A DNA stretch of 64,000 nt from Lewinella sp. 4G2 (GTDB lineage Bacteria; Bacteroidota; Bacteroidia; Chitinophagales; Saprospiraceae), in assembly GCF_001625015.1 (NCBI RefSeq), contig NZ_LVWJ02000014.1, positions 3,348,001 to 3,412,000 of the forward strand, given 5' to 3'. Under the pieces are notes generated by a model, which was not told the DNA's origin, did no database searches, and was given only the letters and a program-made list of their open reading frames with translations. Below, piece after piece: positions 699 through 57,634 of this stretch. The position numbers and the translations under genes were made by a program. The first letter of the stretch is position 1; each line of letters begins with the position of its first letter.

Positions 699-767
699 GG
701 GGAGTTGTTGGGTATTACGAGATCAGGAATATCTGGGCGCCCCGACAAAGTACGGGACTTACTGCGT

Positions 768-784
768 GGCGCTGCCGCAGGTGC
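768..784 (-). repeat. Family A element, short form
   Basis: GGCGCTGCCGCAGGTGC, the reverse complement of the family A 17-mer. It lies in the 185-bp gap between the response regulator and the next gene. The 16 bases after it (GATGTTTTGGGATGGA) are identical to those after the copy at 5002-5018, so this subtype is longer than 17 bp. Confidence 0.8.
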
Positions 785-4859: not shown

Positions 4860-4876
4860 GCACCTGCGTCAGCGCC
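4860..4876 (+). repeat. Family A element, short form
   Basis: GCACCTGCGTCAGCGCC in the 375-bp gap 4783-5157. It forms an inverted pair with the copy at 5002-5018, 125 bp apart. The remainder of the gap has no gene-like reading frame or other recognised feature. Confidence 0.8.
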
Positions 4877-5001: not shown

Positions 5002-5018
5002 GGCGCTGCCGCGGGTGC
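5002..5018 (-). repeat. Family A element, short form
   Basis: GGCGCTGCCGCGGGTGC, inverted relative to 4860-4876. It is followed by the same 16-bp flank (GATGTTTTGGGATGGA) as the copy at 768-784. Confidence 0.8.
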
Positions 5019-9553: not shown

Positions 9554-9603
9554 GCACCTGCGTCAGCGCCAAATAAGGCTAAGTCGGGCGCTGCCGCGGG
9601 TGC
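9554..9603. repeat. Family A inverted pair (two short copies)
   Basis: GCACCTGCGTCAGCGCC at 9554-9570 and GGCGCTGCCGCGGGTGC at 9587-9603, separated by 16 bp. Together they make a near-perfect 17-bp inverted repeat that could fold as a long hairpin. It lies in the divergent gap between the SnoaL-like gene and the TPR gene. Confidence 0.82.
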
Positions 9604-9655
9604 CAGGAAAGGATCGAGTAGAAGGACTGGCGGTTGACCGATTGACCCTACCTTA

Positions 9656-9667
9656 GTGTCTAGACAC
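9656..9667. promoter_or_regulatory. 12-bp perfect palindrome before the TPR gene
   Basis: GTGTCTAGACAC, 13 bp upstream of the ATG at 9681, overlapping a TACCTTAG box at 9649-9656 that resembles the Bacteroidota -7 element. This suggests an operator at the start site. There is no further support. Confidence 0.35.
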
Positions 9668-9680
9668 CACTTGAAACTTG

Positions 9681-10619: not shown

Positions 10620-10630
10620 GGGGGGATTGC

Positions 10631-10770: not shown

Positions 10771-10774
10771 CTCC

Positions 10775-11347: not shown

Positions 11348-11403
11348 TTGGGGAACGGTATTTGGTGGGGTAACGGTGAATGATGCCGGAGGTTGTTGCG
11401 TAC

Positions 11404-11560
11404 AGTCCCGGAGGGGCGTTTATTGTAGCGTGGGGATGGTTCCCCACGTTTTCGTTCATCGTTAGATGGGTCAACCCCCACGTTTTCGATTAATATTCGA
11501 CGTATCAATCCCCACGTTTTCGTTTGTCATTGGGCGGGACCAATCCGCGTTTTCGATGAT
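11404..11560 (+). repeat. Type B double-hairpin element with tail array
   Basis: Small hairpin of the form GTCCCGGAGGGGC, long hairpin GCGTGGGGATGGTTCCCCACG plus TTTTCGTT, then three more right-arm units ending in CCCCACGTTTTCG(A/T)TT and a decayed CCGCGTTTTCG. Its tail runs straight into the tail of an inverted type C element. Confidence 0.83.
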
Positions 11561-11693
11561 TCCACGGTCAAACATCGTCAAACGAACGCGTAGGGTTTCA
11601 CGATTTGGCATGATTGAACGAACACGTAGGGTTCCACGGTCTCGCGACCTGTTCCACCCTACGCTAAGGGAGACCGTCCCGTTCGGGACTAGT
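11561..11693 (-). repeat. Type C double-hairpin element with arm array, tail to tail with type B
   Basis: On the minus strand: GTCCCGAACGGGAC hairpin at the right end, then the GCGTAGGGT...ACCCTACG long hairpin, then right-arm copies (CGTAGGGTTTCACG type) with about 36-bp spacing toward 11561, where it meets the type B tail. Confidence 0.83.
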
Positions 11694-11758
11694 ATTCGTG
11701 AAACGACGGAATTGTCGAGACAGGCCTACCTTACCAACGCGCGTCAATTCTCCCCCAA

Positions 11759-12295
11759 ATGCCAAAAACAAAAATCTTCACCGCCACCTCCCTAGACGGC
11801 TACCTAGCCGGCCCCAACGGCGAACTCGACTGGCTCGAAACCACTCCCAACCCCACCCAAAACGATATGGGTTTCGTCGCCCTCATGAACGAGATCGACG
11901 CTGTCGTCATGGGCCGCACGACGTTTGAGACCGTCCTCGCGTTTGGGGTGGAATGGCCCTATGCCAAACCCGTATTCGTCCTGAGCAATACCCTAAAAAA
12001 GGTGCCGGCGGAGCTAAGGGATAAAGTATCTCTAACCCGTGGCACTCCTATGAAAGTCGTAGATCAACTCCATCAGGCTGGCTACGAAACGCTCTACGTG
12101 GATGGCGGCGCCACCATCCAATCCTTCCTCCGTGACGATTTGGTGGATGAATTATGCATCACGACCATACCCATCCTGCTGGGTGGCGGTGCCTCCCTCT
12201 TCGGCGAATTGACCGACCGCCTAACCTTCGATCTCGTCAAGGTCGAGGTATTCCTGGAACACGTGGTACAAACCACCTACCGCCGCACCCGGTAA
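11759..12295 (+). CDS. RibD C-terminal / dihydrofolate-reductase-like protein
   Basis: Cytoplasmic 178-residue protein of the dihydrofolate-reductase-like RibD C-terminal group (YwjB/YyaP type). Seen: IFTATSLDGYLAGPNGELDWLE at the start, DAVVMGRTTFETVL (the nucleotide-binding MGRxTxE pattern), VFVLSNTLKKVP, TLYVDGGATIQSFLRDDLVDELCITTIPILLGGGASLFG and a closing strand. These proteins are taken to be NAD(P)H-dependent reductases of unknown substrate; this one is not a true DHFR or a full RibD. A type C repeat begins at the stop codon. Confidence 0.87.
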   Translation: MPKTKIFTATSLDGYLAGPNGELDWLETTPNPTQNDMGFVALMNEIDAVVMGRTTFETVLAFGVEWPYAKPVFVLSNTLKKVPAELRDKVSLTRGTPMKVVDQLHQAGYETLYVDGGATIQSFLRDDLVDELCITTIPILLGGGASLFGELTDRLTFDLVKVEVFLEHVVQTTYRRTR

Positions 12296-12372
12296 TAGTC
12301 CCGAAGGGACGGATCACCTTAGCGTAGGGTGTAACAGGTCGCGAGACCGTGAAACCCTACGTATTCGTTTCC
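12296..12372 (+). repeat. Type C double-hairpin element, complete single copy
   Basis: GTCCCGAAGGGAC hairpin, spacer CACCTTA, long hairpin GCGTAGGGT...ACCCTACG with inner arms ACAGGTC/GACCGTG and tail GTATTCGTTT. It begins immediately after the stop codon of the upstream gene. Confidence 0.85.
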
Positions 12373-12386
12373 CAACGCAAAAATCC

Positions 12387-12520
12387 CAGCCCCAGCGGGG
12401 CGTCTACCGTAGCGTGGGGGTCAACCCCCACGTTTTCGTTACGGCCCACGTTTTCGTTGCCCCCCACGTTTTCATTACCGCCCACGTTTCCGTTGCTTCC
12501 CGCGTTTCCGTTGATCGAAA
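12387..12520 (+). repeat. Type B double-hairpin element with short-unit tail array
   Basis: GCCCCAGCGGGGC hairpin, spacer, GCGTGGGGGTCAACCCCCACG hairpin core and TTTTCGTT, then four shorter units of about 18-21 bp (CCCACGTTTTCGTT type), each slightly altered. The rest of the gap up to 12631 has no gene; it is C/A-rich leader sequence. Confidence 0.83.
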
Positions 12521-12631
12521 CATGGTCGTCAATCCCGCCAATTTCGATTCCCAAAGAAACCCCTCTCCCAAAAAATCCCCCCGAATTTGAACGCCCACCC
12601 CCCCACGGGGTATACCACCCCAAAAAACCCC

Positions 12632-14740
12632 ATGTCCCAACGCCTCGCCCTGATCATAATCCTCCTCCTCACCTTCCTCGCCACCCAAACCCTCTCCGCC
12701 CATTCCGAACCCCATTTCCCGGCACCTGCGCGAGCGCCAAACTTGTCCCGCATTTTATCGGGAGCAGCGCCCGCAACCCCTAAAACCCTATTACCACTAA
12801 GCGCCCCGGAACCATTCGTGAGCTTGCTATTTGAGCAACACAACCCGGAGTATTACGCTAAGCAAGCAGCAGACTGGGAAGCCATCGCCACCGGCGAATG
12901 CAGCGACGCCAACGCCATCTGGAACTACTACAAGGCCGCCCACTACGCCAACCGATTTGCGGAGGGGACGTACGACTTGCCCGACATCCTCGCCATGGCC
13001 GAAGAGCGGTTAGAAGCGAACAGTTTTGAACTGAATTACCTGCGTTTCGCCGATGCCAAGGACCCAACCCTGCGCCACGCCCACCTCGTACGGGCCAACG
13101 CCGCCGACCCCAACCGGCTGGAGGCCGCGACCGCGCTCTCGGCCTACTACACGATCATCGGACAGTGGGCGCGGCGGGACCAAACGCTGATCGATATGCA
13201 CCGGCGGCGGGCCATTCCGGAAGGGGTGATGGAGTACAACTACAACCAGCTGATGAGCGTAGGCCAGAACGGGGTGTTGCTCACCTACGGCGACGCCGAT
13301 ACCTACCCCAGTTGGCTCCTCCAGAGCGCCTACCGGGTGCGGCCGGACGTACACGTGATCAACTACAACCTGCTGGTGAATTTTCCCGCTTACCGGGAGG
13401 TCGTTGTGGACCGCCTCGGCATCAAACTGCCGAAGGGTCGGGAACCGGATACCGACCCTTTTGCCCTGCTCGCCCGCCAAGCAAATGACGTGTACGTCGC
13501 CACGACCGCCCGCGAAACCCTACCCGCCGACCGCGCGAAGGACTTTTACCTGACCGGCCTCACCCTCCGCATCAGCGAAAAGCCGCTCGATAACCTGGAC
13601 CGGATCGCCCAACTCTACCGCCACACCTGGCGGCTCGAACAGCTGCGCTTTCCCTTTGCCGAAGGGCCGCGGCAGCGCGTCGCCGACCAGCTCAACCAAA
13701 ATTACCTGCCCGCTCTGCTCACGCTCTACGAAGCCGAACCGAAACTGGCCGATTTGAAGGATTTGATCTCCGGCATCGCTGACCGCGCCGGGGTCTCCGA
13801 AACAGTCAATAAAATCATCGCGCCGGAAGCCGCGCTGCCCGCCCTCGCCGGGGCCGACGTGGACCTGCGGGCCAAGGATATCGCGAAAGGATTTTCCTAC
13901 GTGCCCTCCGGAAATTATACGGATGTTCGCGATAAATCCACGACCAGCATTAACGGCTTTTACGCGGGTGAAACGAACGTCACCAACGCGGAATACCAAA
14001 GCTTTTTGGAGGACCTCCTGCGGCAGCGCGATTTTGATCTGTTGAGTAGGGTAGAGGTCGCCCGGCCCAACCTGGATACGCTGAAAAAAGCCTTGCTGGA
14101 AACCGCGGATGCGGAATCGTACGTCAATATGATCATGGGTGTCGACCCGCGCTACGCCGCCCACCCGGTGGTTAACATCAGCTACGAGGCCGCGGAATTG
14201 TACGCCATCTGGTTGGCCCAGGTCTACAACAGCGACCCGAAAAGGCCGGACGGGCGCAACGTTCGTTTCCGGTTATTTGAGGCCACGGAATACGCCTACG
14301 CGGCGCAGGGCGGCCGGGAGTACGCGCCCTATCCGTGGGGCGGGCCGTATTACCGCAACTCTAAGGGCTGCATCCTGGGAAATCTGAATATGCTGCACCC
14401 GGTTTCGCTGGAAGAGACCAAGATTTTCCGCGAAAAGATCTCCGTTTCCACTTATCTCTCTCCCAGGAAGCGGGCCGAAATCCTCGAACGAACGAACGTG
14501 GAGTGTGAGTACGACGACGATGGCGGCTTTTTAACCGTGCAGGCCGATGCCTATTACCCCAACGACTACGGTTTGTACAACATGGCCGGAAATGCGGCCA
14601 CCATGGTCCACCCGGAAGGGACTGCCGCCGGAGGAAGCTACCTCGACCCCGCCGAACGCATCAAGGTCGGCTCCACCCAACAACTTGCTTTGCCCCACCC
14701 GGGCGTCGGTTTCCGGCTCATCATGATGTACGTAGATTAG
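12632..14740 (+). CDS. Exported FGE-sulfatase-fold protein (GldK/GldJ-like), probably non-catalytic
   Basis: Exported 702-residue protein. ATG at 12632 gives a clear signal peptide (ALIIILLLTFLATQTLSA). A family A long element encodes residues 31-47 (APARAPNLSRILSGAAP), directly after it. Residues 55-300 are helical and include LTYGDADTYPSWLLQSAYRV, like the soluble end of DUF2723 proteins. Residues about 410-702 form a formylglycine-generating-enzyme fold: GFYAGETNVTNAEYQSFL, PVVNISYEAAELYAIWLA, FRLFEATEYAYAAQGG, YPWGGPYY, YGLYNMAGNAATMVHPEGTAAGGSYLD, GVGFRLIM. The active-site cysteines of true FGE are absent, so a structural role as in GldK/GldJ is likelier. It is the first gene of an operon with an ECF sigma factor. 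Confidence 0.85.
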   Translation: MSQRLALIIILLLTFLATQTLSAHSEPHFPAPARAPNLSRILSGAAPATPKTLLPLSAPEPFVSLLFEQHNPEYYAKQAADWEAIATGECSDANAIWNYYKAAHYANRFAEGTYDLPDILAMAEERLEANSFELNYLRFADAKDPTLRHAHLVRANAADPNRLEAATALSAYYTIIGQWARRDQTLIDMHRRRAIPEGVMEYNYNQLMSVGQNGVLLTYGDADTYPSWLLQSAYRVRPDVHVINYNLLVNFPAYREVVVDRLGIKLPKGREPDTDPFALLARQANDVYVATTARETLPADRAKDFYLTGLTLRISEKPLDNLDRIAQLYRHTWRLEQLRFPFAEGPRQRVADQLNQNYLPALLTLYEAEPKLADLKDLISGIADRAGVSETVNKIIAPEAALPALAGADVDLRAKDIAKGFSYVPSGNYTDVRDKSTTSINGFYAGETNVTNAEYQSFLEDLLRQRDFDLLSRVEVARPNLDTLKKALLETADAESYVNMIMGVDPRYAAHPVVNISYEAAELYAIWLAQVYNSDPKRPDGRNVRFRLFEATEYAYAAQGGREYAPYPWGGPYYRNSKGCILGNLNMLHPVSLEETKIFREKISVSTYLSPRKRAEILERTNVECEYDDDGGFLTVQADAYYPNDYGLYNMAGNAATMVHPEGTAAGGSYLDPAERIKVGSTQQLALPHPGVGFRLIMMYVD
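12722..12771 (+). repeat. Family A element, long form, inside a gene
   Basis: 50-bp long form: GCACCTGCG, then 34 bp holding the TCCCGC ATTTTA TCGGGA hairpin, then CAGCGCC. It begins at the first base of codon 31 of the FGE-fold gene and is fully translated. Confidence 0.85.
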
Positions 14741-14748
14741 CCAATACC

Positions 14749-15303
14749 TTGACCGACCGCCAACTACTCATCGCCGCCAGCCAGGGAGACCAGGCCGCTT
14801 TCACCGATCTCTACCGGAGGTACGGAGCGCGCCTCTACGCCTATTTCCTGCCCCGCGCCGGTAGCGATGCGGCCCGCGCCGAGGACTTGCGCCAACAAGT
14901 TTTCCTGCGCCTGTTGGAGAGCCGGGCCTTCCGGGAGGCGCGCGACAATGCTGTTTCCGCGCCCGACGATCTTGGTCCGCTACTCTTCCACATCGCCGCC
15001 AATTTGCTTAAAAATGAGTACCGAGGGACGGAGCGTCGCCTCCGCCGACAGGGGGAATTCGCCGCCCGGCAACCCCTTTTTGAGCAGCGAGATTCGGAGC
15101 CGGATAAACAAGCCTTACAACGCGCCATCAGCCAATTGCCCGAGCCGCAACGGCTCTGCGTCGACCTCCGTTTCCGCCAGAATTACTCCATTGAGGAGAT
15201 CGCCGATGCCCTTGATTGCGCGCCCGGCACCGTCAAAAGTCGCCTCCATTACGGCCTCAAAAAGCTCGCCGCCATCCTCCGCCCTACCACGACCAACAAA
15301 TAA
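14749..15303 (+). CDS. ECF-type RNA polymerase sigma factor
   Basis: Extracytoplasmic-function sigma factor of 184 residues. Region 2 is seen in AAFTDLYRRYGARLYAYFLPRAGSDAARAEDLRQQVFLRLLES (about residues 17-60) and region 4 in LQRAISQLPEPQRLCVDLRFRQNYSIEEIADALDCAPGTVKSRLHYGLKKL (about 122-178). The start is a TTG eight bases after the previous stop; it gives the usual MTDRQLLIAASQGDQAAF beginning and no ATG is available. The next gene starts two bases after the stop and encodes a membrane protein, the usual arrangement for a sigma/anti-sigma pair. Confidence 0.92.
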   Translation: MTDRQLLIAASQGDQAAFTDLYRRYGARLYAYFLPRAGSDAARAEDLRQQVFLRLLESRAFREARDNAVSAPDDLGPLLFHIAANLLKNEYRGTERRLRRQGEFAARQPLFEQRDSEPDKQALQRAISQLPEPQRLCVDLRFRQNYSIEEIADALDCAPGTVKSRLHYGLKKLAAILRPTTTNK

Positions 15304-15305
15304 TT

Positions 15306-15926
15306 ATGGATTACCTCGATTACCTCGCCGACCACCGTTACGATGAGTTGCCGCCCGCCGTCCGCGACCAAATCAGCCGTGAGGAGTACGATGCTCACCG
15401 GGAGCTCAGTCAGCAGTTGAGTACAGGTCAGTCCTCCGCGTTACCCGGTCCGGCGCTGCTCGCTGCCTTCTCGAATGCAACGAATGTGGCGCCGCTCCCG
15501 ATAAAAGGCGGGACGAGTTTGGCGCTCGCGCAGGTGCAGGGAAAAGGGGAAGGGCAACGCAAAGAAAGGACCTCCATCTGGCCCTTCGTCGCCGCTGCCG
15601 GCTGGTTGCTGTTCCTGCTGGCGGGAGGTCTGTACGTATCCCGCCCAACCGAATTGGTGGAACTTGCCGCAGTAGTACCTCCCCCCGTCATCAGGACGGA
15701 TACCGTACGCATCGCCCAAACGGATACCCTATACCTACCGAAGTATAAATACGTGACCCGCATCGTCCGCGATACCGTCTACCGGCCATCTTCGGAACCG
15801 ATCTACGTCACCGTCCGCGATACGGTGTATCGGGCCGCCCCGCCGGCGGAGGTGTACCGGGTTTCCGGGAGTAAGAATTTGGAAGGTAGGGAAGAGTTGT
15901 TGCGGTTGATGATTTCGGCGGAGTGA
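15306..15926 (+). CDS. Probable anti-sigma factor, single membrane pass
   Basis: Membrane protein of 206 residues, placed two bases after the ECF sigma gene. The N-terminus (MDYLDYLADHRYDELPPAVRDQI and SREEYDAHRELS) is a short cytoplasmic helical part. A linker follows, then one transmembrane helix (about residues 92-113, PFVAAAGWLLFLLAGGLYV) and a periplasmic tail with DTVRIAQTDTLYL, RDTVYRP and RDTVYRA repeats. No zinc-type ZAS motif is seen. The role as an anti-sigma factor is inferred from position and topology. A long family A element in reverse orientation encodes most of the linker (residues about 62-77). Confidence 0.72.
   Translation: MDYLDYLADHRYDELPPAVRDQISREEYDAHRELSQQLSTGQSSALPGPALLAAFSNATNVAPLPIKGGTSLALAQVQGKGEGQRKERTSIWPFVAAAGWLLFLLAGGLYVSRPTELVELAAVVPPPVIRTDTVRIAQTDTLYLPKYKYVTRIVRDTVYRPSSEPIYVTVRDTVYRAAPPAEVYRVSGSKNLEGREELLRLMISAE
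15488..15537 (-). repeat. Family A element, long form, inside a gene (reverse)
   Basis: Reverse complement of the 50-bp long form (GGCGCCG...CCCG ATAAAAGG CGGGA...GGCGCTCGCGCAGGTGC). It is translated in another frame as APLPIKGGTSLALAQVQ, directly before the membrane helix of the probable anti-sigma factor. Confidence 0.85.
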
Positions 15927-16001
15927 TAGTCCCGAAGGGACGGTTCCCCTTAGCGTAGGGTGGAGTAGGCCGAAGGGCCACGGAACCCTACGTATTCGTT
16001 T
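15926..16001 (+). repeat. Type C double-hairpin element, complete single copy
   Basis: Starts on the last base of the stop codon of the upstream gene: GTCCCGAAGGGAC hairpin, spacer CCCCTTA, long hairpin GCGTAGGGT...ACCCTACG with inner GGCCGAAGGGCC-like loop, tail GTATTCGTTT. The inner loop stem differs from other C copies but still pairs. Confidence 0.84.
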
Positions 16002-16017
16002 GCCGATATATGCAAGC

Positions 16018-16072
16018 CAGCCCCAGCGGGGCGTCTACCGTAGCGTGGGGGTCAACCCCCACGTTTTCGTTG
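16018..16072 (+). repeat. Type B double-hairpin element
   Basis: GCCCCAGCGGGGC hairpin, spacer GTCTACCGTA, GCGTGGGGGTCAACCCCCACG and TTTTCGTTGG. It is followed at once by the tail of an inverted type C array. Confidence 0.85.
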
Positions 16073-16080
16073 GACGTTAC

Positions 16081-16368
16081 ATGGGTTTCACGATTTTACG
16101 TGTATTATCAAATACGTCGGGTGCCACGGTTTCGGATGATTACACGAATGCGTAGGGTTTCACGATATGGCGTGATTGAACGAACACGTATGATATCCAC
16201 GATATGGCGTGATTGAATCAACACGTATGATATCCACGATACGGCGTGATTGAACTAATACGTAGGGTTCCACGGTATGGTGTGAATAAACGAATACGTA
16301 GGGTTCCACGGTCTCGCGACCCGTTCCACCCTACGCTAAGGTGGCCCGTCCCATTCGGGACTGGTATT
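16081..16368 (-). repeat. Type C element with eight-unit 36-37 bp arm array
   Basis: The C hairpins lie at the right end (GTCCCGAATGGGAC at about 16350-16363). The array runs left; the CACG step falls at 16092, 16128, 16164, 16201, 16238, 16274 and 16310, a constant period of 36-37 bp. Within a unit about 22 bp are well kept (ACGTAGGGTTCCACG) and about 14 bp vary. It is the longest arm array in the window. Confidence 0.86.
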
Positions 16369-16389
16369 CGTTCATTAACTAGTAACCAT

Positions 16390-16595
16390 CCAGCCCCGGC
16401 GGGGCGTCTATCGTAGCGTGGGGGTCAACCCCCACGTTTTCGTTTATTGTATTGCGATTGTCAACCCCCACGTTTTCGTTTATTGTATTGCGATGATCAA
16501 CCCCCACGTTTTCGTTTATTGTATTGGGATGATCAACCCCCACGTTCTCGCTTTGTCGCAGCGTTACGGTCAATCCCTACGGTTTCGTTTATCAT
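16390..16595 (+). repeat. Type B element with 36-bp tandem arm array
   Basis: GCCCCGGCGGGGC hairpin, spacer, GCGTGGGGGTCAACCCCCACG, then four near-identical 36-bp units beginning TCAACCCCCACGTTTTCG at 16425, 16461, 16497 and 16533, and a decayed fifth at 16570. Units also share TTATTGTATTG. Because the units are near-identical and lack unique spacers, this is not a CRISPR array. Together with its neighbours it fills the 760-bp gap 15927-16686. Confidence 0.87.
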
Positions 16596-16621
16596 CCCAA
16601 GCTCCATTACCCACCTCCACC

Positions 16622-16638
16622 GCACCCGCGGCAGCGCC
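16622..16638 (+). repeat. Family A element, short form
   Basis: GCACCCGCGGCAGCGCC, 48 bp upstream of the cupin gene start. The bases after it include the gene's likely promoter region (TAATTTTTG at 16672-16680). Confidence 0.8.
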
Positions 16639-16686
16639 CTTGAAATCGGTGAATGAACGTACATTGAGATTTAATTTTTGTACATC

Positions 16687-17163
16687 ATGCGCCACCTATA
16701 TAAGCTCTGCCTCGTTCTGCTAACCCTCCCCGCGTGCGCTCAGCAGTCTGCGTACCAAATCAACTCCTACCAAACGGAAGGTCGCAAGGCACCCAACACC
16801 CACTACCTCGGGGAAGCGTGGTTGAACCCGTTGATCCACGACGATGAGGATTTGGGGTATAACATTACGAAGGCGACCTTCAAAGCCAATTCGACGCTGG
16901 ATTGGCACCGCCACGCCACGGCCCAAGTGTTGGTTATCGTTGAAGGAGAGGCCTATTATCAGGAGCGGGGGAAGGACCCAGTCATCTTGAGAGAGGGCGA
17001 CGTGATAAAATGCGACAAGGAAACCGAACACTGGCATTCCTCTACCAAAACGAGTGACGTGACCTACCTGGCGCTCTACGGTGGCGGCGCACCTACTACC
17101 TGGACGGAGGTGGTGACGCAGGAGTATTACGATGAGGTGGCAGCGCGACTTTCAAAGGAGTGA
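16687..17163 (+). CDS. Exported cupin-domain lipoprotein
   Basis: Protein of 158 residues with a lipoprotein signal (RHLYKLCLVLLTLPAC, lipobox LPAC). The rest is one cupin barrel: motif 1 is WHRHATAQVLVIVEGEAYYQERG with two His and a Glu-like metal set, and motif 2 is LREGDVIKCDKETEHWHS with the last His. A tail TWTEVVTQEYYDEVA resembles cupins paired with carboxymuconolactone-decarboxylase proteins. The metal and substrate are unknown. ATG at 16687 is preferred to TTG at 16678 because it starts the signal peptide directly. Confidence 0.82.
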   Translation: MRHLYKLCLVLLTLPACAQQSAYQINSYQTEGRKAPNTHYLGEAWLNPLIHDDEDLGYNITKATFKANSTLDWHRHATAQVLVIVEGEAYYQERGKDPVILREGDVIKCDKETEHWHSSTKTSDVTYLALYGGGAPTTWTEVVTQEYYDEVAARLSKE

Positions 17164-17276
17164 AGGTTGGAATGATATTAACCAGAATCCGATAGATTTT
17201 ACCAGACGAGGCAAAGGACCAACGATGGTTGAATTGTATTTTGGTGTCTTCATTGCACCTCGTTATCAACTCATCC

Positions 17277-18725
17277 ATGCACCACCGGTTTCAATTTGTG
17301 AGTACAATCCTGCTACTTTGCCTACTCTCCTGCCAAACCAACCCCGCTCCTTCACCCAATGACCCGGCACCTGCGCGAGCGCCAACCTCGTCCCGCATTT
17401 TATCGGGAACAGCGCCCCCTGAATATGCTAAATTGGCCGCTGAGGTACGCGCGGAAACCGAACGGGTATGGGCGGCCTACGAACGGTACGCCTGGCCGCA
17501 CGATAATTTACTGCCGCTCAGCAAAAGCTATCGGGATTGGTACGCGGAGCCGATCTTCATCTCGCCGATTGACGGTTACAGCACGCTAAAGCTGATGGGA
17601 CTCGACGAGCAAGCTAACCGTATTGAAAGGTACGTGGCGGACTCGATCAGTTTTGACCGGGATATCGACGTGAAGGTATTTGAGGTAAATATTCGCGTCC
17701 TGGGCGGTTTGTTGGCGATGTACGCCGAAACAAAGAACCCCGCCGTACTGGCCAAAGCAGCCGATTTTGGTGACCGGATGCTACCCGCCTTCGACTCACC
17801 AACGGGAATGCCTTACTACTACGTGAATTTAAAAACGGGAAAACCGAGCGGTGCGATAGTGAATGTGGCCGAAGCGGGATCGTACTTGCTGGAATTGGGC
17901 CTGTTGAGTTATTACACGAACGACGCCAAATACTACCAAACTGGAAAGCGGGCGACGCTGGCCCTCAATACCCGCCGGTCAGTAATCGGATTGTTCGGCC
18001 GCGACATAAATGTGGAAACGGGGGAGTGGACGGAAACCAATAGCATGGTGGGTGCCTACGCGGATAGCTACTTCGAATACTTATACAAAGCTTATCTACT
18101 GTTTGGTGACCCCGAGTTGAAGGAAATTTGGGACGACAACATCAGCGCCATCCAAAACTACCTGCCCGACGAGCAGGATAGTTTGCTTTGGTACCCGCGC
18201 GTCACGATGGAGACTGGCGAGGTCACGCAAACGGAAATTACGCTGTGGGATGCCTATTTCCCCGCCCTACTGGTATTAGCGGACGACGTGGATCGCGCAA
18301 AACATGCGTTTAATGCATGGGACGTCGTCGTCACCAAACACGGAATGACACCAATGGTGTACAACTATGCAGCAGATACCGTCGTGAATGGCTACCACCA
18401 ATTGAACCCCGAAGTAATAGAATCCGCCTATTACCTGCACGCCGCCACGGGCGACGAAAGGTACCGGACTTTTGCCCGAGATTACTTTACCCGGTTAAAG
18501 GAGTGCTGCCGTACTGAGGTAGCATTCACCCACCTCAAAGATGTGCGCACGGGCGAGCGGGATGATGAAATGGCGACGTTCTTCGTGGCAGAGACGCTCA
18601 AGTACTTCTATTTGCTCTATGGTGGCAGTGAAACAGTTGGGCTGGATACCCACGTGTTCACCACGGAGGCACACCCGTTTGCTAAGAAAGACATTATTAA
18701 GGCTGGGGAACGTTTGGGCTTTTAA
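17277..18725 (+). CDS. GH47 family alpha-mannosidase, lipoprotein
   Basis: Predicted surface or periplasmic glycoside hydrolase family 47 (class I alpha-1,2-mannosidase) of 482 residues. ATG at 17277 starts a lipoprotein signal (RFQFVSTILLLCLLSC, Cys19). Family A long DNA encodes residues 31-47 just after it. The GH47 (alpha/alpha)7 motifs are all present in order: NVAEAGSYLLELGLLS, GAYADSYFEYLYKAYL, LNPEVIESAYYLHAATGDERYR, DEMATFFVAETLKYFYLLY and VFTTEAHPF, the last with the calcium-binding Thr. The acidic residues in AEAGS, DSYFEY, NPEVIES and DEMATFF match the family's catalytic set. It would trim alpha-1,2-mannose from mannans or glycans. Confidence 0.93.
   Translation: MHHRFQFVSTILLLCLLSCQTNPAPSPNDPAPARAPTSSRILSGTAPPEYAKLAAEVRAETERVWAAYERYAWPHDNLLPLSKSYRDWYAEPIFISPIDGYSTLKLMGLDEQANRIERYVADSISFDRDIDVKVFEVNIRVLGGLLAMYAETKNPAVLAKAADFGDRMLPAFDSPTGMPYYYVNLKTGKPSGAIVNVAEAGSYLLELGLLSYYTNDAKYYQTGKRATLALNTRRSVIGLFGRDINVETGEWTETNSMVGAYADSYFEYLYKAYLLFGDPELKEIWDDNISAIQNYLPDEQDSLLWYPRVTMETGEVTQTEITLWDAYFPALLVLADDVDRAKHAFNAWDVVVTKHGMTPMVYNYAADTVVNGYHQLNPEVIESAYYLHAATGDERYRTFARDYFTRLKECCRTEVAFTHLKDVRTGERDDEMATFFVAETLKYFYLLYGGSETVGLDTHVFTTEAHPFAKKDIIKAGERLGF
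17367..17416 (+). repeat. Family A element, long form, inside a gene
   Basis: 50-bp long form, starting at the first base of codon 31 of the GH47 gene, in the same frame as the copy in the FGE-fold gene. It translates as APARAPTSSRILSGTAP. Confidence 0.85.
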
Positions 18726-26162: not shown

Positions 26163-26179
26163 GGCGCGGCCGCAGGTGC
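26163..26179 (-). repeat. Family A element, short form, variant
   Basis: GGCGCGGCCGCAGGTGC, two mismatches from the usual form, in the 226-bp gap before the GH140-like gene's 3' end. Nothing else is seen in the gap. Confidence 0.65.
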
Positions 26180-27750: not shown

Positions 27751-27767
27751 GCACCTGCGTCCGCGCC
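27751..27767 (+). repeat. Family A element, short form, variant
   Basis: GCACCTGCGTCCGCGCC, one mismatch from the usual form, between two minus-strand genes. Confidence 0.72.
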
Positions 27768-30088: not shown

Positions 30089-30105
30089 GGCGCTGCCGCA
30101 GGTGC
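30089..30105 (-). repeat. Family A element, short form
   Basis: GGCGCTGCCGCAGGTGC, 60 bp upstream of the ADP-ribosylglycohydrolase start, between it and the AraC gene's end. Confidence 0.8.
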
Positions 30106-31608: not shown

Positions 31609-31625
31609 GCACCTGCGGCAGCGCC
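31609..31625 (+). repeat. Family A element, short form
   Basis: GCACCTGCGGCAGCGCC, in the 379-bp gap 31492-31870. The rest of the gap holds only a terminator at its right side and AT-rich sequence. Confidence 0.8.
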
Positions 31626-34365: not shown

Positions 34366-36691
34366 TGTCTGTTTTTATGAGGTGATGGACGCCCTTCCAG
34401 CTGAAGGTCTGCCCGTTGATTTTTAATTGGTGTTCGGTAGTCCTGTCGGGATCCTGAAGCGCGAGGGTGAGTACCCACGTTGTTCCGTCATTATGCGTTA
34501 GTTGAAGGGCTACGTAGTCCTCCGTATCTATCACCAATTCCAGATTAGCAACTTCACCATAGGGGCGGCGGGGCACCTCTTCCCGAGGATCGTAACTACC
34601 GTGCGTTTCCAGTACGGAGGCGAAGGTAGTTGTGGCTGCCGTACGACGGAGTAGGAAGCCCGGGTCACGCCGAAGGTTGAACTCGGGGTCGTTAGCGCCC
34701 AGTCGCAGGAACAGGATTTCGTCACCCGGCTGCGTAGCCATGGTTTGGGTGTAGAAGGTGCCTTTGTGTAGCCAGTTGATGTGGGCTACGCCGGGCTTCG
34801 GTACGCCGCTGGCTTCCGCGTACACGTGCTGATAGCCGTGTCCGTTACCCAGAGGTTGGAGCCGGTTTCGGGTAGCGTAAGGGAAGTTCGTTTGCAGTAA
34901 CTCACCCAGGTACCAAGTTGGGAGATCGTGCTGGGCGTTTTTGGTTCCAGCGGAACGAAATACATCTACCATCAGCGGTTGGGTAAACGCATCGATTGTC
35001 ACCAGTAGGTTAAAACGTTGCAGATCACGACCCGGATAGGCATTGTCGGTTGTGGCACTTACTAATTGCTGATCCGTATTGGCTACGTCAAAAGTATAAA
35101 GGTCGGGGTGAAGATCCTCCGCGATGCTGATCTTGCCTTCGTACTGAGAGGTTTCGTCGATCACCAGGGTGTTGTGCGCCAGCGTGTGCTTAGCCCAACT
35201 GTTGTTCTCCTTAAGGTAACGACCGCCGCCTTTCTGATCGATGTTAACCCACCGGGCCGCGCCGTAATCCTGGATCACCTCCCCCTTTTCGTTGTAAAGC
35301 GAGTAGGCCAATTTGTCGTAGTGACCGTGGCCCATTCCCTGCGCGGAGTACTTCATTACGAGGCAAGTTTGGGCGTCGTCCGATCCGTAGGCCCGGAGGA
35401 CGCCCACGCCACCTTCATCACCTTCGGGGCCATCCATAAAAGCTACGGGGGAAGGTTGGTAGGGGACGGCTTCACCCGCCGCAATAGCGTCGGCAACGGC
35501 CGCCCCTTCAACGTCGAGGGTAAATGCCCCCTGTTGCTCGGCCAACGATAGTAACATCGGGTCGCGACCGAAGTGGTACCACGCGTAATCAACGGCCTTC
35601 ACCACTTCCGGCGAGTAAACGGACATGCCCTTCTGGCTGTCGTTGATGGGAAAAAAATCACCGGTCGGGTCCGCTTGGTTGAGCATACCGAGGACGGCCT
35701 TTTTAAGGATGCCATCCCGGTAATCCAGCACGCCAATTTCGGGGCGTTCGGTGGCCAGCGCGCGGCCGAACAGTAAAAAAGGTGACAGTGCGTACCGCAA
35801 ATAATAAGGCCCTTCCGTGAAGTAGCCATCCGGAGAAAAGCTGAGGTCGAGCTGCGCCAGGAAACCAGCGCGCCCGTATTTGTCTTTGATCTTGCCCGTA
35901 TCGTCATCCCGCAGGTCATCTGGTAACACGTCCGGCGGTAAGCCGTAGAGGGCGCGGTTGACGAGGGAGTCATCTTCCATTACCAGGCCGATCATCCCCA
36001 CCGCAGCGCTGCCCCAGGTGGAATGGTTGTGGATTCGGTTGAAGAATTGCGGGTTCTCAACGGATAGGAAGTCCGCCATCGGCCGGAAGAGTTCGTTGTC
36101 CAGTTTCTGGCGGTTGTCTTCATCGAGCCAGTCGTAGATATCGTTATAGCCCTGGCTGACGTACACCAACCAATTGGCGTCATTGAGGCACTGCCAGAAG
36201 ATCTTCCCGGTGGCGTAAGACCGGTCCGTCGGGTGAGTGGGCCACGTCGGGTAGCGCTCGGCGTACAGCAACAGCGCATCCCGTAGGAAGACGGCGTAAC
36301 GTTCGTCGCCGGTCAGTCGGTACAGCGCGCCGGCATCCCGTAGGGTATACCAATTCTGTTTGTGGATTTCGTGCGTCGGCCCACCGGCCATGTCCTTTGG
36401 CGTAGGCACTTCAATCCCAGCCTGCATCACCTTTTCTACTTGCACCTGCGTCAGCGCCAACTGCTCCTGAAAAGCGGGCGCGTATTCTTCGCTAGCAACA
36501 GACTTTCCTGCCTCATTTTCGCAAGAGAACAGCAGAACTAGTATAAGCGCCGCTGTTGTGATTGACGCAAGCTTAGTAATAACAGCCGATACATTGCTCA
36601 CATCTATCACGTCTATCACGTCTCCCCTCTCCTTCGGAGAGGGGCCGGGGGAGAGGATTCCAACACCAACCAAAAGTTTCCACATAATCAT
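34352..36691 (-). CDS. PL17 alginate lyase (oligoalginate lyase), lipoprotein
   Basis: Polysaccharide lyase family 17 enzyme of 779 residues that releases unsaturated monomers from alginate oligomers. The ATG at 36691 overlaps the PL6 stop in an ATGA, which supports this start. The N-terminal 60 residues are odd: after MIMWKLLVGVGIL comes a hairpin repeat read as SPGPSPKERGDVIDVIDV, then a true lipoprotein signal (TTAALILVLLFSC). The alpha/alpha-toroid domain has WYTLRDAGALYRLTGDERYAVFLRDALLLYAERYP and FFNRIHNHSTWGSAAVGMIGLV, with the catalytic Asn-His. The heparinase II/III-like part follows (YSAQGMGHGHYDKLAYSLY, DYGAARW, HNTLVIDET). A family A short copy encodes residues 79-83. Confidence 0.92.
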   Translation of the reverse strand: MIMWKLLVGVGILSPGPSPKERGDVIDVIDVSNVSAVITKLASITTAALILVLLFSCENEAGKSVASEEYAPAFQEQLALTQVQVEKVMQAGIEVPTPKDMAGGPTHEIHKQNWYTLRDAGALYRLTGDERYAVFLRDALLLYAERYPTWPTHPTDRSYATGKIFWQCLNDANWLVYVSQGYNDIYDWLDEDNRQKLDNELFRPMADFLSVENPQFFNRIHNHSTWGSAAVGMIGLVMEDDSLVNRALYGLPPDVLPDDLRDDDTGKIKDKYGRAGFLAQLDLSFSPDGYFTEGPYYLRYALSPFLLFGRALATERPEIGVLDYRDGILKKAVLGMLNQADPTGDFFPINDSQKGMSVYSPEVVKAVDYAWYHFGRDPMLLSLAEQQGAFTLDVEGAAVADAIAAGEAVPYQPSPVAFMDGPEGDEGGVGVLRAYGSDDAQTCLVMKYSAQGMGHGHYDKLAYSLYNEKGEVIQDYGAARWVNIDQKGGGRYLKENNSWAKHTLAHNTLVIDETSQYEGKISIAEDLHPDLYTFDVANTDQQLVSATTDNAYPGRDLQRFNLLVTIDAFTQPLMVDVFRSAGTKNAQHDLPTWYLGELLQTNFPYATRNRLQPLGNGHGYQHVYAEASGVPKPGVAHINWLHKGTFYTQTMATQPGDEILFLRLGANDPEFNLRRDPGFLLRRTAATTTFASVLETHGSYDPREEVPRRPYGEVANLELVIDTEDYVALQLTHNDGTTWVLTLALQDPDRTTEHQLKINGQTFSWKGVHHLIKTDNESK
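36442..36458 (+). repeat. Family A element, short form, inside a gene
   Basis: GCACCTGCGTCAGCGCC on the plus strand; antisense to PL17, in which it is read as ALTQV at residues 79-83, a short distance after the lipobox Cys. Confidence 0.82.
36601..36655. repeat. Hairpin repeat inside the PL17 N-terminus
   Basis: CCCCTCTCC TTC GGAGAGGGG, a 9-bp stem with a C(UUCG)G-type loop, with GCCGGGGGAGAGG flank on one side and the tandem GTGATAGAC on the other. It encodes SPGPSPKERGDVIDVIDV between the start codon and the lipoprotein signal. Similar elements are common intergenic repeats in Bacteroidota, as far as I recall. Confidence 0.7.
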
Positions 36692-39000
36692 TCCAGCCTA
36701 GTACCGATCGCCCGGCCGTTAAGAGAAGTCATCGGTTCCGTCAAATCACGTTTGAGCCCCGCCGTGCGGTAGGGTTCGCCGTTGTCTACGAGTTTCGTGC
36801 CGCCGGAGAAGACGGAATTGGTAATGTCGACCACCGGCTCACCGACCACCAGGTGGAGGGCAACCGGTTTGGAATCGTCGAAAATGCAACCGTCAATCTG
36901 TACCACTTGCGTGCCGTGGAGGCGGATCGAAGCCCCCGTGCGGTTGCGTTTGTCGCCACCAATTTCGTCGAAAGTGCAGTCCTTGATGGTCACCATCGGG
37001 CCCAGCGTGCTTTCATCGCGGCCGCCCCGGTGGATGTGGATGGCTTCCTGACCGATATCATCAAACAGGCAGTTTTCAACGACCACTGATTGGGCATTAT
37101 ACACGCCAATATCATCCGTTTCCCGGTCGAGGGCGAGCACGCTGCCGGAGACGTTTTCAAAGCGATTATTGCGCAGCACGATCGAGTCCGCAAAGGTGTT
37201 CTTGTATACGCGCAGGACGTTGAAGCTGTGGTTGATGTCCAGGTCCGTAAAGTCGCAATCCTCAATGAATAGCTTGTAGTTCCTGATCATGCTGTAGCGG
37301 CTGGTGCGGACGACGGCGTTCAGTGGGCGGTCGCGGCAGGCCTTGCCATCCACTTTGACGCCACGGAGCATTAGCGAACCCCCGTTTTCGATGTTAAAAA
37401 GCGTTGTTTTTTCGAAGAGCAGCGTCGGCTTTTCCGCCAGACCCTCCGCAGCGATCACGCTGATGGGGTGGGGGAGATCGATGGATTTCGTGGTACGGTA
37501 TTCCCCCGCGGCGGTGAGGCGCAAAACGTCACCGCGCGAAGAGCTACGCACGGCTTCCCAGATGGTGTTGGTACCTGGGCTGACGTCGATCGTTTTTCCG
37601 GTCGCGAAGAAGGGTTCCTGTACGTCCATCTCGTAGTAGGAAGCTCCCGTATTTTCGGCGGTCGCCATGAGGTCGATACCCCGGCGAATACTGTCCGACA
37701 CCGCTAAACCGCTGGGTAATAGAATGCCATTTCCAACATCTTCGAGGTTTATCTCACGGCTCTCAAAACCGGTAGATTGTAGTGGTTTCAAGCCATCGCT
37801 GAGCAGATTGCCCCGGAAGGTGATGCCGGAGAGGTCGTCAAAAACGTTGAATAGAGAGCCACCGGATTTGCGGTAGAATACGTTGTCGGTGAAGGTCGTC
37901 CGGTCCGGCGTTGCGCTGCGTTCGGCGTCGCTACCCACCGCGAGGCCCACGTTCGCACATTCCACCAGTATGTTGCGGCTGATATCCGAATCCGTGACCT
38001 GAACGTAGCGGTTCAACGGGGAATTGGGTACGCCATTCATCACCGTCAACGCACTGCGAAACCGATATCCCTGGAGGCCACTGAGGTAGTTATTCACTAC
38101 GGTTTGCTTAGCGTTGATCACGCGGATACCGCCCGTGTGAGCCAATCCGGAACCGAAGAAGAAGTTATTGTTGATGGTCGTCTCATCACCGTGACGGATC
38201 GTCAGCGTGCCGCGGCTATTCCTGAAAGTGTTGTAGCGGTAGATGTTCTGGCCGGACTTATTGGAAATAATCTCCACTTCGCCGTTGCACTGCTCAAAGA
38301 GATTGGCCTCCACGAGCGTGTTAGAGTTGAACATGCAGTAGTGCGAGGTACCGATGCGCAGCGTCTCCCCGCCATTCGAACCCAACGTACCCCGATAACC
38401 GAAATAGTTGTGGTCAACCCGGTGGTAGTTCTCGCGGTCGGCTTCATCGCCAAGGCGCACGGCCAGTAAAACGCCCTGGTTGCGTTTCCCGACGAAGCTA
38501 TTGTGATCTACGCGGTTGTTGCGCCCGTAGAGGGCCACCCAGTAGTCACTATCAAAGCGCTCATTGGGGTTGTAATTGTCGACCACGCACTGCGTCACGC
38601 GGCAATGATTACAGACGCCTTCTTCCGTCCGAAAGCTAATCACTTCACTCGTTGGGGTGAAACCGTTTTGGAAAACGAAGCCTTCAACAATGATGTATTC
38701 ACCGGAAATGGCCAAACTGGATTCACCTTCCAAAATGACACCGCCATCCGTTTCCGCGACCAGGTAGATCGGGTTCTCTGATGTTCCCATGGCGTGTAGC
38801 GCAAATTCCTCATCTGTGTACGTTCCGTTGGGCACGACGATTCGGTCCCCCGGTCCGGCGGCGTCCAGTTGTGCGCGAAAATCTGTCGGAGCAGGTGCTT
38901 CGCAACCAAGAGCAGCTATCAAGAGCATTAGACAGACTAACCACCGCAAGGAGGTTGATGTGGGCGCTGCCGCGGGTGCAGAGTGAAGGATAGGGTGCAA
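36688..39000 (-). CDS. PL6 alginate lyase, lipoprotein, with second beta-helix domain
   Basis: Polysaccharide lyase family 6 enzyme of 770 residues. The N-terminus has a family A copy (residues 8-13, APAAAP), then a lipoprotein signal (RWLVCLMLLIAALGC). The catalytic beta-helix domain (to about residue 380) has the PL6/chondroitinase B pattern: GDRIVVPNGTYTDEEF, GNQGVLLAVRLGD-like strands, NGGETLRIGTSHYCMFNSNTLVEANLFEQCNGEVEIISNKSGQNIYRYNTFRNSRGTLTIRHGDE, with the catalytic Lys in SNKSG and Arg in IRHG. A second beta-helix domain fills the rest (NTIWEAVRSSSRGDVLRL, CDFTDLDINHSFNVLRVYKN). It would cut polymeric alginate at the cell surface. Confidence 0.92.
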   Translation of the reverse strand: MHPILHSAPAAAPTSTSLRWLVCLMLLIAALGCEAPAPTDFRAQLDAAGPGDRIVVPNGTYTDEEFALHAMGTSENPIYLVAETDGGVILEGESSLAISGEYIIVEGFVFQNGFTPTSEVISFRTEEGVCNHCRVTQCVVDNYNPNERFDSDYWVALYGRNNRVDHNSFVGKRNQGVLLAVRLGDEADRENYHRVDHNYFGYRGTLGSNGGETLRIGTSHYCMFNSNTLVEANLFEQCNGEVEIISNKSGQNIYRYNTFRNSRGTLTIRHGDETTINNNFFFGSGLAHTGGIRVINAKQTVVNNYLSGLQGYRFRSALTVMNGVPNSPLNRYVQVTDSDISRNILVECANVGLAVGSDAERSATPDRTTFTDNVFYRKSGGSLFNVFDDLSGITFRGNLLSDGLKPLQSTGFESREINLEDVGNGILLPSGLAVSDSIRRGIDLMATAENTGASYYEMDVQEPFFATGKTIDVSPGTNTIWEAVRSSSRGDVLRLTAAGEYRTTKSIDLPHPISVIAAEGLAEKPTLLFEKTTLFNIENGGSLMLRGVKVDGKACRDRPLNAVVRTSRYSMIRNYKLFIEDCDFTDLDINHSFNVLRVYKNTFADSIVLRNNRFENVSGSVLALDRETDDIGVYNAQSVVVENCLFDDIGQEAIHIHRGGRDESTLGPMVTIKDCTFDEIGGDKRNRTGASIRLHGTQVVQIDGCIFDDSKPVALHLVVGEPVVDITNSVFSGGTKLVDNGEPYRTAGLKRDLTEPMTSLNGRAIGTRLE
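38963..38979 (-). repeat. Family A element, short form, inside a gene
   Basis: GGCGCTGCCGCGGGTGC, read in PL6 as APAAAP at residues 8-13, before the lipoprotein signal. Confidence 0.8.
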
Positions 39001-43963: not shown

Positions 43964-44053
43964 GGCGCTGCCGCAGGTGCAAAGCCAAGGAACAAGAAAC
44001 AATAGGTAAGGCCCGGTTTACTCGCCCATCTCCCTGGCACCCGCGGCAGCGCC
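43964..44053. repeat. Family A inverted pair
   Basis: GGCGCTGCCGCAGGTGC at 43964-43980 and GCACCCGCGGCAGCGCC at 44037-44053, 56 bp apart, inverted. It lies just upstream of the ATG at 44088. Confidence 0.8.
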
Positions 44054-56872: not shown

Positions 56873-57634
56873 ATGCGTTTCTATATATCAATTTTCGCGC
56901 TCTGCCTGCTCGCATCCTGTAACGAGGAAGTTGCGGACCCGGTCGATCTGGCTTCCGACCAGGATTACTTTCCCGTCGAGCTGAATCGCCCCGTTATTTA
57001 TGCTCAGGACAGCATCGTGTTAGTAGGGCTATCGCGTGGCGTGCGTTACGATACGGCGCGGTCGCAGGTGCGGGAGCAATTGGTTGAATCGTTCACTACG
57101 GGTGATGGGCAAACCGTCTACCGAGGGGAACGCTGGCAACGTACGGACGGATCTGCAGAATGGCAGTTTGTCCAGACGTACACCCTCCAAAAGGCGGAAA
57201 CCGCCGCCTTTCGGACCGAAGACAACCTGACCTTCACCAAGCTGATCTTCCCCATCACGCCCAACCGATCGTGGGATGGCAACGTGGCTTTCGACGTTAC
57301 CCAGGACATCCCCGTCGGCGGCGAATTCCTTGACGTTTACAACGGTTGGAATTATCGTTACGCTCCAACTATGCTGGATACAACGCTAAATGGGAATGCA
57401 CTTACCGAAACCCAACTCGTCATTCAGGCAGAGGTGAACAACGCCATTGAGTACCGGCAGGCCTTCGAACGGTATGCTCCGGGCATTGGACTGGTAGAAC
57501 GATTCCTGGATGCCCGCCACACCCAGTGCCGGAATTGCTGCAATGCCGACCTGCAAGCCTGTAGCCTTTTGCCCTGGGACGAGAAGGCGGAAAAGGGGTA
57601 CATCATCCATCAGACCCTACTCAGTTTTGAATGA
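56873..57634 (+). CDS. Hypothetical lipoprotein
   Basis: Lipoprotein of 253 residues. ATG at 56873 is chosen because it starts the signal directly (RFYISIFALCLLASC, lipobox LASC); the open frame upstream is antisense to hslR. The mature part is beta-rich (YDTARSQVREQLVESFTTGDGQTVYRGERWQRTDGSAEWQFVQTYTLQ, LTFTKLIFPITPNRSWDGNVAFD, YEQAFERYAPGIGLVERFLDA-like end). The last 40 residues hold four Cys (RHTQCRNCCNADLQACS). No family was recognised. Confidence 0.75.
   Translation: MRFYISIFALCLLASCNEEVADPVDLASDQDYFPVELNRPVIYAQDSIVLVGLSRGVRYDTARSQVREQLVESFTTGDGQTVYRGERWQRTDGSAEWQFVQTYTLQKAETAAFRTEDNLTFTKLIFPITPNRSWDGNVAFDVTQDIPVGGEFLDVYNGWNYRYAPTMLDTTLNGNALTETQLVIQAEVNNAIEYRQAFERYAPGIGLVERFLDARHTQCRNCCNADLQACSLLPWDEKAEKGYIIHQTLLSFE

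What the first reader, a model, noticed from the sequence alone, without database searches (positions are those of the whole stretch)
12722..17416. A 50-bp repeat translated in three unrelated proteins, differing from its short form by exactly 33 bp
The long form of family A occurs at 12722-12771, 15488-15537 (reverse) and 17367-17416, always inside genes. Aligned to the 17-bp short form, the long form is the same ends (GCACCTGCG and CAGCGCC) with a 33-bp net gain that holds a small hairpin (TCCCGC ATTTTA TCGGGA). 33 bp is 11 codons, so switching forms keeps the frame. Two copies are read as APARAP-xx-SRILSG and begin at codon 31, right after export signals; the third, read on the opposite strand, lies just before a membrane helix. 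This recalls the Rickettsia palindromic elements that insert into genes, but the sequence is different.
Basis: partly seen in the sequence, partly recalled or inferred. Interest (0 to 1): 0.78.

Follow-up and report, generated by a model that had tools for sequence, protein, structure and literature searches.

The report
Tiny hairpin insert in repeated DNA word
In a Lewinella-type bacterium a 17-letter DNA word is repeated about 940 times, and in about 22 of those places a 33-letter foldable piece has entered at one spot of the word, often inside genes, where it adds 11 amino acids without breaking the reading frame.

Summary
In detail: three 50-bp copies in the window (0 expected), 22 in the genome. 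"Always in genes" does not: 18 of 22 are in coding frames, which equals coding density.

The "short form" is the key. GCACCYGCGNCMGCGCC occurs 941 times here and in 20 of 21 genomes of the genus, with dialects. It resembles DNA uptake sequences; that function is untested.

The long form is this 17-mer with 33 bp inserted between bases 9 and 10; in 18 of 22 copies the outer parts rebuild an exact 17-mer. The insert folds as two abutting hairpins with some compensatory changes. In relatives the short motif sits at the same codons: exact in CcsA, an anti-sigma-type gene and an epimerase, 16 of 17 in BirA, absent in the FGE gene. The gain is 10-11 residues in the first two; the epimerase and BirA fit less well. 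Species G002 has another hairpin at the same point, 33 bp in 18 of 22.

It works like Rickettsia palindromic elements but is smaller and site-specific. How it spreads is not shown.

The parts
12722..12771 (+). Long form, copy 1, codons 31-47 of an FGE-sulfatase-domain protein (gene 12632-14740), read APARAPNLSRILSGAAP
12731..12763 (+). The 33-bp two-hairpin insert of copy 1 (motif bases 1-9 before it, 10-17 after it)
   Evidence: parse
15488..15537 (-). Long form, copy 2, read antisense (VAPLPIKGGTSLALAQV) in a putative anti-sigma membrane protein (gene 15306-15926; no Pfam family, next to an ECF sigma factor); the orthologue of N. persica has the exact 17-bp motif here and a net 11 residues fewer
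15496..15528 (-). The 33-bp insert of copy 2
17367..17416 (+). Long form, copy 3, codons 31-47 of a glycosyl hydrolase family 47 protein (gene 17277-18725), read APARAPTSSRILSGTAP
17376..17408 (+). The 33-bp insert of copy 3
735..784 (-). Intact short motif (768-784) followed by a different 33-bp hairpin (735-767) resembling the G002 insert
4860..4876 (+). Short motif, first of an inverted pair
5002..5018 (-). Short motif, second of the pair
9554..9570 (+). Short motif, first of an inverted pair
9587..9603 (-). Short motif, second of the pair
16622..16638 (+). Short motif, called intergenic
26163..26179 (-). Short motif, called intergenic
27751..27767 (+). Short motif, called intergenic
30089..30105 (-). 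Short motif, called intergenic
31609..31625 (+). Short motif, called intergenic
36442..36458 (+). Short motif, at the 5' end of a called gene, antisense
38963..38979 (-). Short motif, called intergenic
43964..43980 (-). Short motif, first of an inverted pair
44037..44053 (+). Short motif, second of the pair
57055..57071 (-). Short motif inside a called gene, antisense

Best explanation
The genome carries a genus-wide 17-bp recognition-type motif (GCACCYGCGNCMGCGCC in a degenerate context of about 35 bp), which behaves like a DNA uptake word or another genome-wide recognition word. In this species a 33-bp unit, made of two abutting hairpins (CGAG/CTCG and TCCCG/CGGGA), has entered about 22 existing copies of the motif between bases 9 and 10, with no target duplication visible and no motif base lost. 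Being 33 bp with readable frames it is tolerated in genes, where it adds 11 residues to loops, linkers and regions behind signal peptides. Shown: the site, the insert, the presence of the motif in relatives at orthologous codons in 4 of 5 families, the pairing, and a parallel insert in a second species. Inferred: that it spreads as a single-stranded hairpin copied or transposed into the motif, for instance by a Y1 (IS200/605-type) transposase, and that a folded single strand brings the two motif parts together. The function of the motif is inferred from its statistics only.
For: Long copies: 22 in G000, reversed-pattern control 0. Of 22, 18 rebuild an exact motif from bases 1-9 and 43-50, against 4 from the first 17 bases. 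They share the context of the short copies (CCC-TT--C before, CAAAT after) and vary at motif bases 6 and 10 much as short copies do, which points to separate sites being entered.

Prior motif in relatives: CcsA has an exact 17-mer in 4 of 19 orthologues and one mismatch in 3 more. The anti-sigma-type orthologue of N. persica has an exact 17-mer, and the G000 protein is a net 11 residues longer between conserved anchors. The epimerase of G002 (79% identical) has an exact 17-mer. The BirA of G002 has 16 of 17 bases in the same frame.

Pairing: the 33-mer folds alone into exactly two hairpins with no spare base. 93.9% of cells pair, 6 cells change on both sides, and 0 of 500 shuffles reach the pairing or the covariation score.

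Parallel: G002 has 22 hairpin inserts at the same point among 42 matches, 18 of them 33 bp.
Against: No enzyme is tied to the insert; none of six Y1 transposase loci has the motif nearer than 269 bp. Folding energy is ordinary for the consensus 50-mer (z -0.8) and weak for the 33-mer (z -1.7). The number of pairs with two-sided change (2) is reached by 145 of 500 shuffles, and relatedness can exceed shuffles without structure. The outer stem of a three-way junction is not kept.

The epimerase does not show the size gain: G002 has the short motif there but is only 2 residues shorter than G000, both being longer than the rest of the genus. BirA is longer by 19 residues, not 11, and the near-motif of G002 overlaps codons for conserved residues, so part of that match may be chance. 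In the anti-sigma-type protein the net 11 includes -3 and +3 residues in the flanking linker. In the FGE protein no relative shows the motif. No long copy has T at motif base 10, which 27 of 178 short copies have. Clustered copies are not significantly more alike (p = 0.14). The G002 insert lacks a clear first hairpin.
Confidence: 0.6

Rival explanations
1. Rickettsia-palindromic-element-like: the whole 50-bp unit is a mobile palindrome that inserts into genes wherever the frame allows, and the short form is its remnant or relative.
For: 18 of 22 copies lie in genes of unrelated families and are read in four frames; copies cluster (5 pairs within 5 kb, 0.44 expected); the spread is species-specific.
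Against: Relatives hold the 17-bp motif at the same codons in CcsA, the anti-sigma-type gene, the epimerase and (16 of 17) BirA. The genic share equals coding density. The ends of the unit are the motif itself, which is about 40 times commoner.
Confidence: 0.13
2. The long form is ancestral and the 17-bp form arises by precise loss of the hairpins (for example slippage across a folded template).
For: The insert folds out exactly, so precise loss would leave the consensus motif. Two species have hairpin forms at the same point, and at the epimerase both G000 and G002 are longer than the genus.
Against: Hairpin forms are seen in 2 of the 6 genomes searched with free length, while the motif is in 20 of 21. 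At CcsA the relatives that have the motif have the short one. The two species' inserts differ in sequence.
Confidence: 0.1
3. The long forms spread by copying between motif sites (ectopic gene conversion or template switching, perhaps with incoming DNA), with no dedicated enzyme. This is a rival on the mode of spread only; it agrees with the best explanation on what the thing is.
For: Context and bases 6 and 10 of each site are kept while the inside is shared. Copies cluster. The window has three copies within 4.7 kb.
Against: Shared flanks are only 9 and 8 bp plus a degenerate context, short for homologous recombination (general knowledge). Nearby copies are not significantly more alike.
Confidence: 0.3
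4. Coincidence of Ala/Pro-rich linkers: the peptides APARAP and the like are selected as protein sequence.
For: The three window copies lie in regions behind signal-like N-termini or in a linker.
Against: The same DNA is read in four frames on both strands and also lies outside genes; DNA letters and hairpin pairing are kept.
Confidence: 0.01

Closest known systems
Rickettsia-specific palindromic elements (RPE)
   Same: Short, hairpin-bearing, translated in frame within unrelated conserved proteins, also found outside genes (PMC2229807, passages read)
   Different: RPEs are 105-146 bp and listed with 12-bp terminal inverted repeats (same passages). Here the insert is 33 bp and enters one position of one 17-bp motif that relatives already have. 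RPE sequences were not compared here
DNA uptake sequences (DUS/USS) of Neisseriaceae and Pasteurellaceae
   Same: Hundreds to thousands of copies, no strand bias, many inside genes, species dialects, even spacing noted by earlier authors (abstracts of PMC3630211 and PMC2346458; passages of PMC1939737). A degenerate flank around a strict core also fits, but that is recalled
   Different: 17-bp core, phylum Bacteroidota, no role in transformation known, neighbouring copies tend to alternate in strand; I recall no inserted hairpins in uptake sequences
REP elements with RAYT (Y1) transposases; GTAG/CGTC-tagged palindromes (PMC3733652, start of abstract and passages)
   Same: Small hairpin units in high copy; the genome has six Y1_Tnp genes
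   Different: The Y1 genes sit near other palindromic families; the insert was found only within or directly after the motif in G000 and is mostly genic here

Membership tests
Rickettsia palindromic elements | In-frame fusion within protein genes | tested here: met
   18 of 22 copies in coding frames, four frames used
Rickettsia palindromic elements | Length 105-146 bp | tested here: not met
   Insert 33 bp, with motif 50 bp; RPE length from passages of PMC2229807
Rickettsia palindromic elements | Long stem-loop with terminal inverted repeats | tested here: not met
   Two short abutting hairpins; outer stem not kept
Rickettsia palindromic elements | Whole element absent from orthologues at the site (my criterion) | tested here: not met
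   33 bp absent, but the 17-bp motif present in a relative (once with one mismatch) at 4 of 5 families
DNA uptake sequence (for the 17-bp motif) | Hundreds to thousands of copies, both strands | tested here: met
   467 forward, 474 reverse, control 0
DNA uptake sequence (for the 17-bp motif) | Dialects between related species | tested here: met
   Base 12 is A in 170 of 178 in G000 and C in 40 of 43 in G002; base 6 also differs; 20 of 21 genomes have the motif
DNA uptake sequence (for the 17-bp motif) | Acquired in genes by base changes, not insertion (recalled as a trait) | tested here: inconclusive
   Gapless in methylmalonyl-CoA mutase against the human enzyme and at two BirA motifs of relatives, 18 of 18 and 17 of 18 orthologues. 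One gap nearby in an FAD oxidoreductase; many other sites, whose output was cut, show gaps in some orthologues
DNA uptake sequence (for the 17-bp motif) | Raises uptake or transformation | not testable with these tools
   Needs an experiment
DNA uptake sequence (for the 17-bp motif) | Competence genes and a receptor in the genome | not tested
REP/RAYT | Element flanks its Y1 transposase gene | tested here: not met
   6 loci read: nearest motif is 269 bp from the Y1 match; other palindrome families lie within about 160 bp in L077 and L080
IS200/IS605-type non-autonomous unit | Hairpin ends, no target duplication, fixed target (recalled) | tested here: inconclusive
   Two hairpins, no duplication seen, fixed site; no cognate transposase identified

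The most novel reading that the evidence does not exclude
The 17-mer is an uptake-sequence system of Bacteroidota, and the 33-bp two-hairpin unit is a parasite or modifier of it. It enters the uptake word itself at one fixed point, folds out in single strands so that the word is restored, and so rides on the transformation that the word promotes, while being read as 11 harmless residues in genes. A second species has its own version.
Probability: 0.22. Interest if true: 0.92.

Novelty: new variant of a known kind. Interest (0 to 1): 0.72.

Why it matters
It offers translated micro-insertions with a known prior site, a likely direction of change and a fixed size, with a parallel in a second species. 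That makes it possible to test how very small hairpin units spread and how proteins gain short peptides. If the 17-mer proves to be an uptake word, sequence-specific transformation would extend to another, distant group of bacteria and acquire a molecular hitchhiker.

Tried and rejected
RAYT/REP origin of the motif: six Y1_Tnp loci were found; other palindrome families lie near them (L077 and L080 by pattern, L078 and L079 by eye), the motif does not.

Insert as a free repeat: with two narrow hairpin patterns, 10 of 10 matches in 567 kb of G000 lie in or directly after the motif; part of those 567 kb was chosen for long copies, and contig C11 has none. In G002 there were 20 matches, all in loci fetched for the insert and their surroundings; 2 of 20 lack an intact first part of the motif. 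The ten G002 stretches chosen by motif positions (200 kb) gave none.

Plasmid or phage origin: no blastn match of the consensus 50-mer at E 0.01.

Long forms in other relatives: none in G001, G005, G009 and G016 by my reading of the free-length matches. One two-mismatch match in G002 and one three-mismatch match in G004, the latter probably chance. The other 15 relatives were searched only at fixed length and with this species' pattern.

Likeness of clustered copies: not significant. Three-way-junction stem: not conserved. Gene-end bias of motif orientation as the cause of strand alternation: weak.

Literature. Listings only: 'DNA uptake sequence'+Bacteroidetes+'natural transformation' (3 papers, unrelated by title), 'natural competence'+Bacteroidota+'uptake sequence' (0), Lewinella+palindromic+repeat+genome (1, unrelated by title), palindromic elements in reading frames (1,554 papers with three of five terms, 15 listed; 23 with two of four terms, 10 listed), RPE terms (22,605, 8 listed), uptake sequences and reading frame (33, 12 listed), Neolewinella/Lewinella/Saprospiraceae with repeat terms (82 with any two terms, 12 listed, none on such repeats by title). 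Passages seen: PMC2229807, PMC3733652, PMC1939737. Outline with abstract seen: PMC2346458, PMC3630211. Any statement that such a system is not in print rests on these searches alone.
Full report
WHAT IS THERE. The three 50-bp copies stand at 12722-12771 (+), 15488-15537 (-) and 17367-17416 (+), with none expected by chance. The window's genome (G000, 5.21 Mb in 21 contigs) has 16 copies in a strict search and 22 in a looser one, with 0 for the reversed pattern. The two named loci that encode a relative of the FGE-domain protein come from Neolewinella persica and an uncultured Lewinella, so the organism is taken to be a Lewinella-type bacterium of the Bacteroidota.

THE SHORT FORM. GCACCYGCGNCMGCGCC occurs 941 times (467 and 474 on the two strands; control 0). 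In the genus it occurs in 20 of 21 genomes, from 0 to 1112 copies. In C11 and the window the number of sites falls to 13 at three mismatches before the background rises, the picture of a maintained word and not of decaying repeats. The core has a degenerate context, CCC--TT--C before it and CAAAT after it. Dialects exist: base 12 is A in 170 of 178 sites of G000 but C in 40 of 43 of G002. In the stretches examined 86 of 175 sites lie in called genes against coding fractions of 0.76-0.84, so it is depleted there, yet common. Of 40 genic copies in C11 and the window, 1 falls in the two frames that would give HLRQRP- and GRCRRC-like peptides (counted by eye). In methylmalonyl-CoA mutase it aligns without a gap to the human enzyme, and two BirA motifs of relatives are gapless in 18 of 18 and 17 of 18 orthologues. 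Other sites, whose output was cut, show gaps, so this is not a law. These traits are those of DNA uptake sequences; no function was tested and competence genes were not looked for.

THE LONG FORM IS THE SHORT FORM PLUS 33 BP. Reading the long form as bases 1-9, a 33-bp insert, and bases 10-17 gives an exact motif in 18 of 22 copies; reading the first 17 bases as the motif gives 4 of 22. Bases 6 and 10 vary among long copies much as among short ones (T/C 14:7; G/A/C 13:6:3), but T at base 10, found in 27 of 178 short sites, is missing; the outer context is the same. This is what separate entries into separate existing sites would leave.

ORTHOLOGUES. CcsA (cytochrome c assembly): 4 of 19 relatives have the exact 17-mer and 3 have it with one mismatch, at the codons where G000 has the long form and 10-11 residues more. 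Anti-sigma-type protein of the window (next to an ECF sigma factor; no Pfam family of its own): N. persica (L075, which contains L084 of G009) has the exact motif in the same frame, and G000 is longer by a net 11 residues between AAF and the PFVAAAGW/PWLAAAGW anchor; the motif part differs by 11 and the flanking linkers by -3 and +3. Epimerase: G002, 79% identical, has the exact motif, but its protein is only 2 residues shorter than that of G000; both are longer than the rest of the genus (G000 by 9), and G000 has 11 gap columns against a solved relative. So the site agrees but the size gain is not shown. BirA: G002 has 16 of 17 bases in the same frame, partly in codons of conserved residues; G000 is 19 residues longer than most. 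FGE-domain protein: no relative shows the motif at the site, in a region of variable length. A choline-dehydrogenase-like protein has 10 extra residues there against a solved relative; its genus relatives, and those of GH47 and the other long-form genes, were not compared.

GENES AND FRAMES. By ORF and codon scoring 18 of 22 copies are in genes and 4 are not (C12:19085, C14:1881381, C14:2603841, C14:2360616; the last is my judgement). Families include an epimerase, a biotin ligase, an ABC-2 permease, a subtilase, CcsA, GH47 and FGE-domain proteins; some have no Pfam family. Long copies are more often genic than short ones (Fisher p = 0.006) but not more than coding density (p = 1).

STRUCTURE. 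The 33-mer folds alone as ((((.......))))(((((........))))) with no base left between or outside the hairpins. In the 22 copies 93.9% of cells pair, six cells have changes on both sides (U-A to C-G four times; G-C to A-U and to C-G once each), and 0 of 500 shuffles reach the pairing or the covariation score, though 145 of 500 reach the number of pairs with two-sided change. Folding energies are mostly not exceptional. Folding the insert out brings motif bases 9 and 10 together; that this matters is inference.

A SECOND SPECIES. With free insert length, G002 shows 22 hairpin copies among 42 matches: 18 with 33 bp, 3 with 32 and 1 with 34, at the same point of the motif but with another sequence (ACGC...AGTCCCG...CGGGGCG) (one shorter, partial match not counted). 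By my reading about four are plausibly coding. In G000 the 18 hairpin copies among 32 matches all have 33 bp; one 49-bp match (C14:3822264) may be a decayed copy. So 33 bp looks like the size of the unit and not only a result of frame selection. G000 also has two intact motifs followed by a G002-like 33-bp hairpin, one of them at 735-784 of the window.

HOW IT MAY SPREAD. Copies cluster: 5 pairs within 5 kb against 0.44 expected, the largest of 5000 random sets being 5; clustered copies are not significantly more alike. The six Y1 transposase genes are candidates by class only. Transposition of a single-stranded hairpin and copying between motif sites both remain open; I lean slightly to the first because the site is exact, nothing is seen to be duplicated or lost, and both hairpins are kept.

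OPEN OBSERVATION. Neighbouring motifs alternate in strand: 60 of 81 in C11 and, in an independent 400 kb, 55 of 76. Leaving out pairs closer than 600 bp it is 47 of 68 and 51 of 72; beyond 2 kb it weakens to 39 of 60 and 34 of 55. By hand, G002 gives 14 of 26 and G001 55 of 93, so it may be peculiar to G000. Spacing is more even than random in C11 (CV 0.61 against 0.88) and less clearly in the second stretch (0.73 against 0.87). No explanation is offered.

Noticed in passing
G000 C11 and C14:2400001-2800000 (L055-L074, L227-L246): Neighbouring 17-bp motifs prefer opposite strands (115 of 157 neighbour pairs; 98 of 140 when more than 600 bp apart; 73 of 115 beyond 2 kb), and in C11 they are more evenly spaced than random.
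   Followed up: partly
window 4860/5002, 9554/9587, 43964/44037: Short motifs often form close inverted pairs; in C11 13 of 13 neighbour pairs nearer than 600 bp are inverted.
   Followed up: partly
window 2235-16600, many places: Other palindromic repeat families (AGCCCCAGCGGGGCG..., GTCCCGAAGGGAC..., CCCACGTTTTCGTT tandem runs); such families lie near Y1 transposase genes in L077 and L080 by pattern, and in L078 and L079 by eye.
   Followed up: partly
window 47680-48361: Four copies of a 163-bp direct repeat in steps of 129, 129 and 261 bp.
   Followed up: no
L073:8022-16292 and the neighbouring 12.9-kb gene of C11: Very long genes carry several motifs, with two inverted pairs at the same 439-bp spacing, consistent with internal duplication.
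   Followed up: no
L014 and L213: After some long forms the first bases of the insert begin again (CAACTCGTCC in L014, GCTAGTCCCACA in L213), hinting at a second, truncated unit.
   Followed up: no
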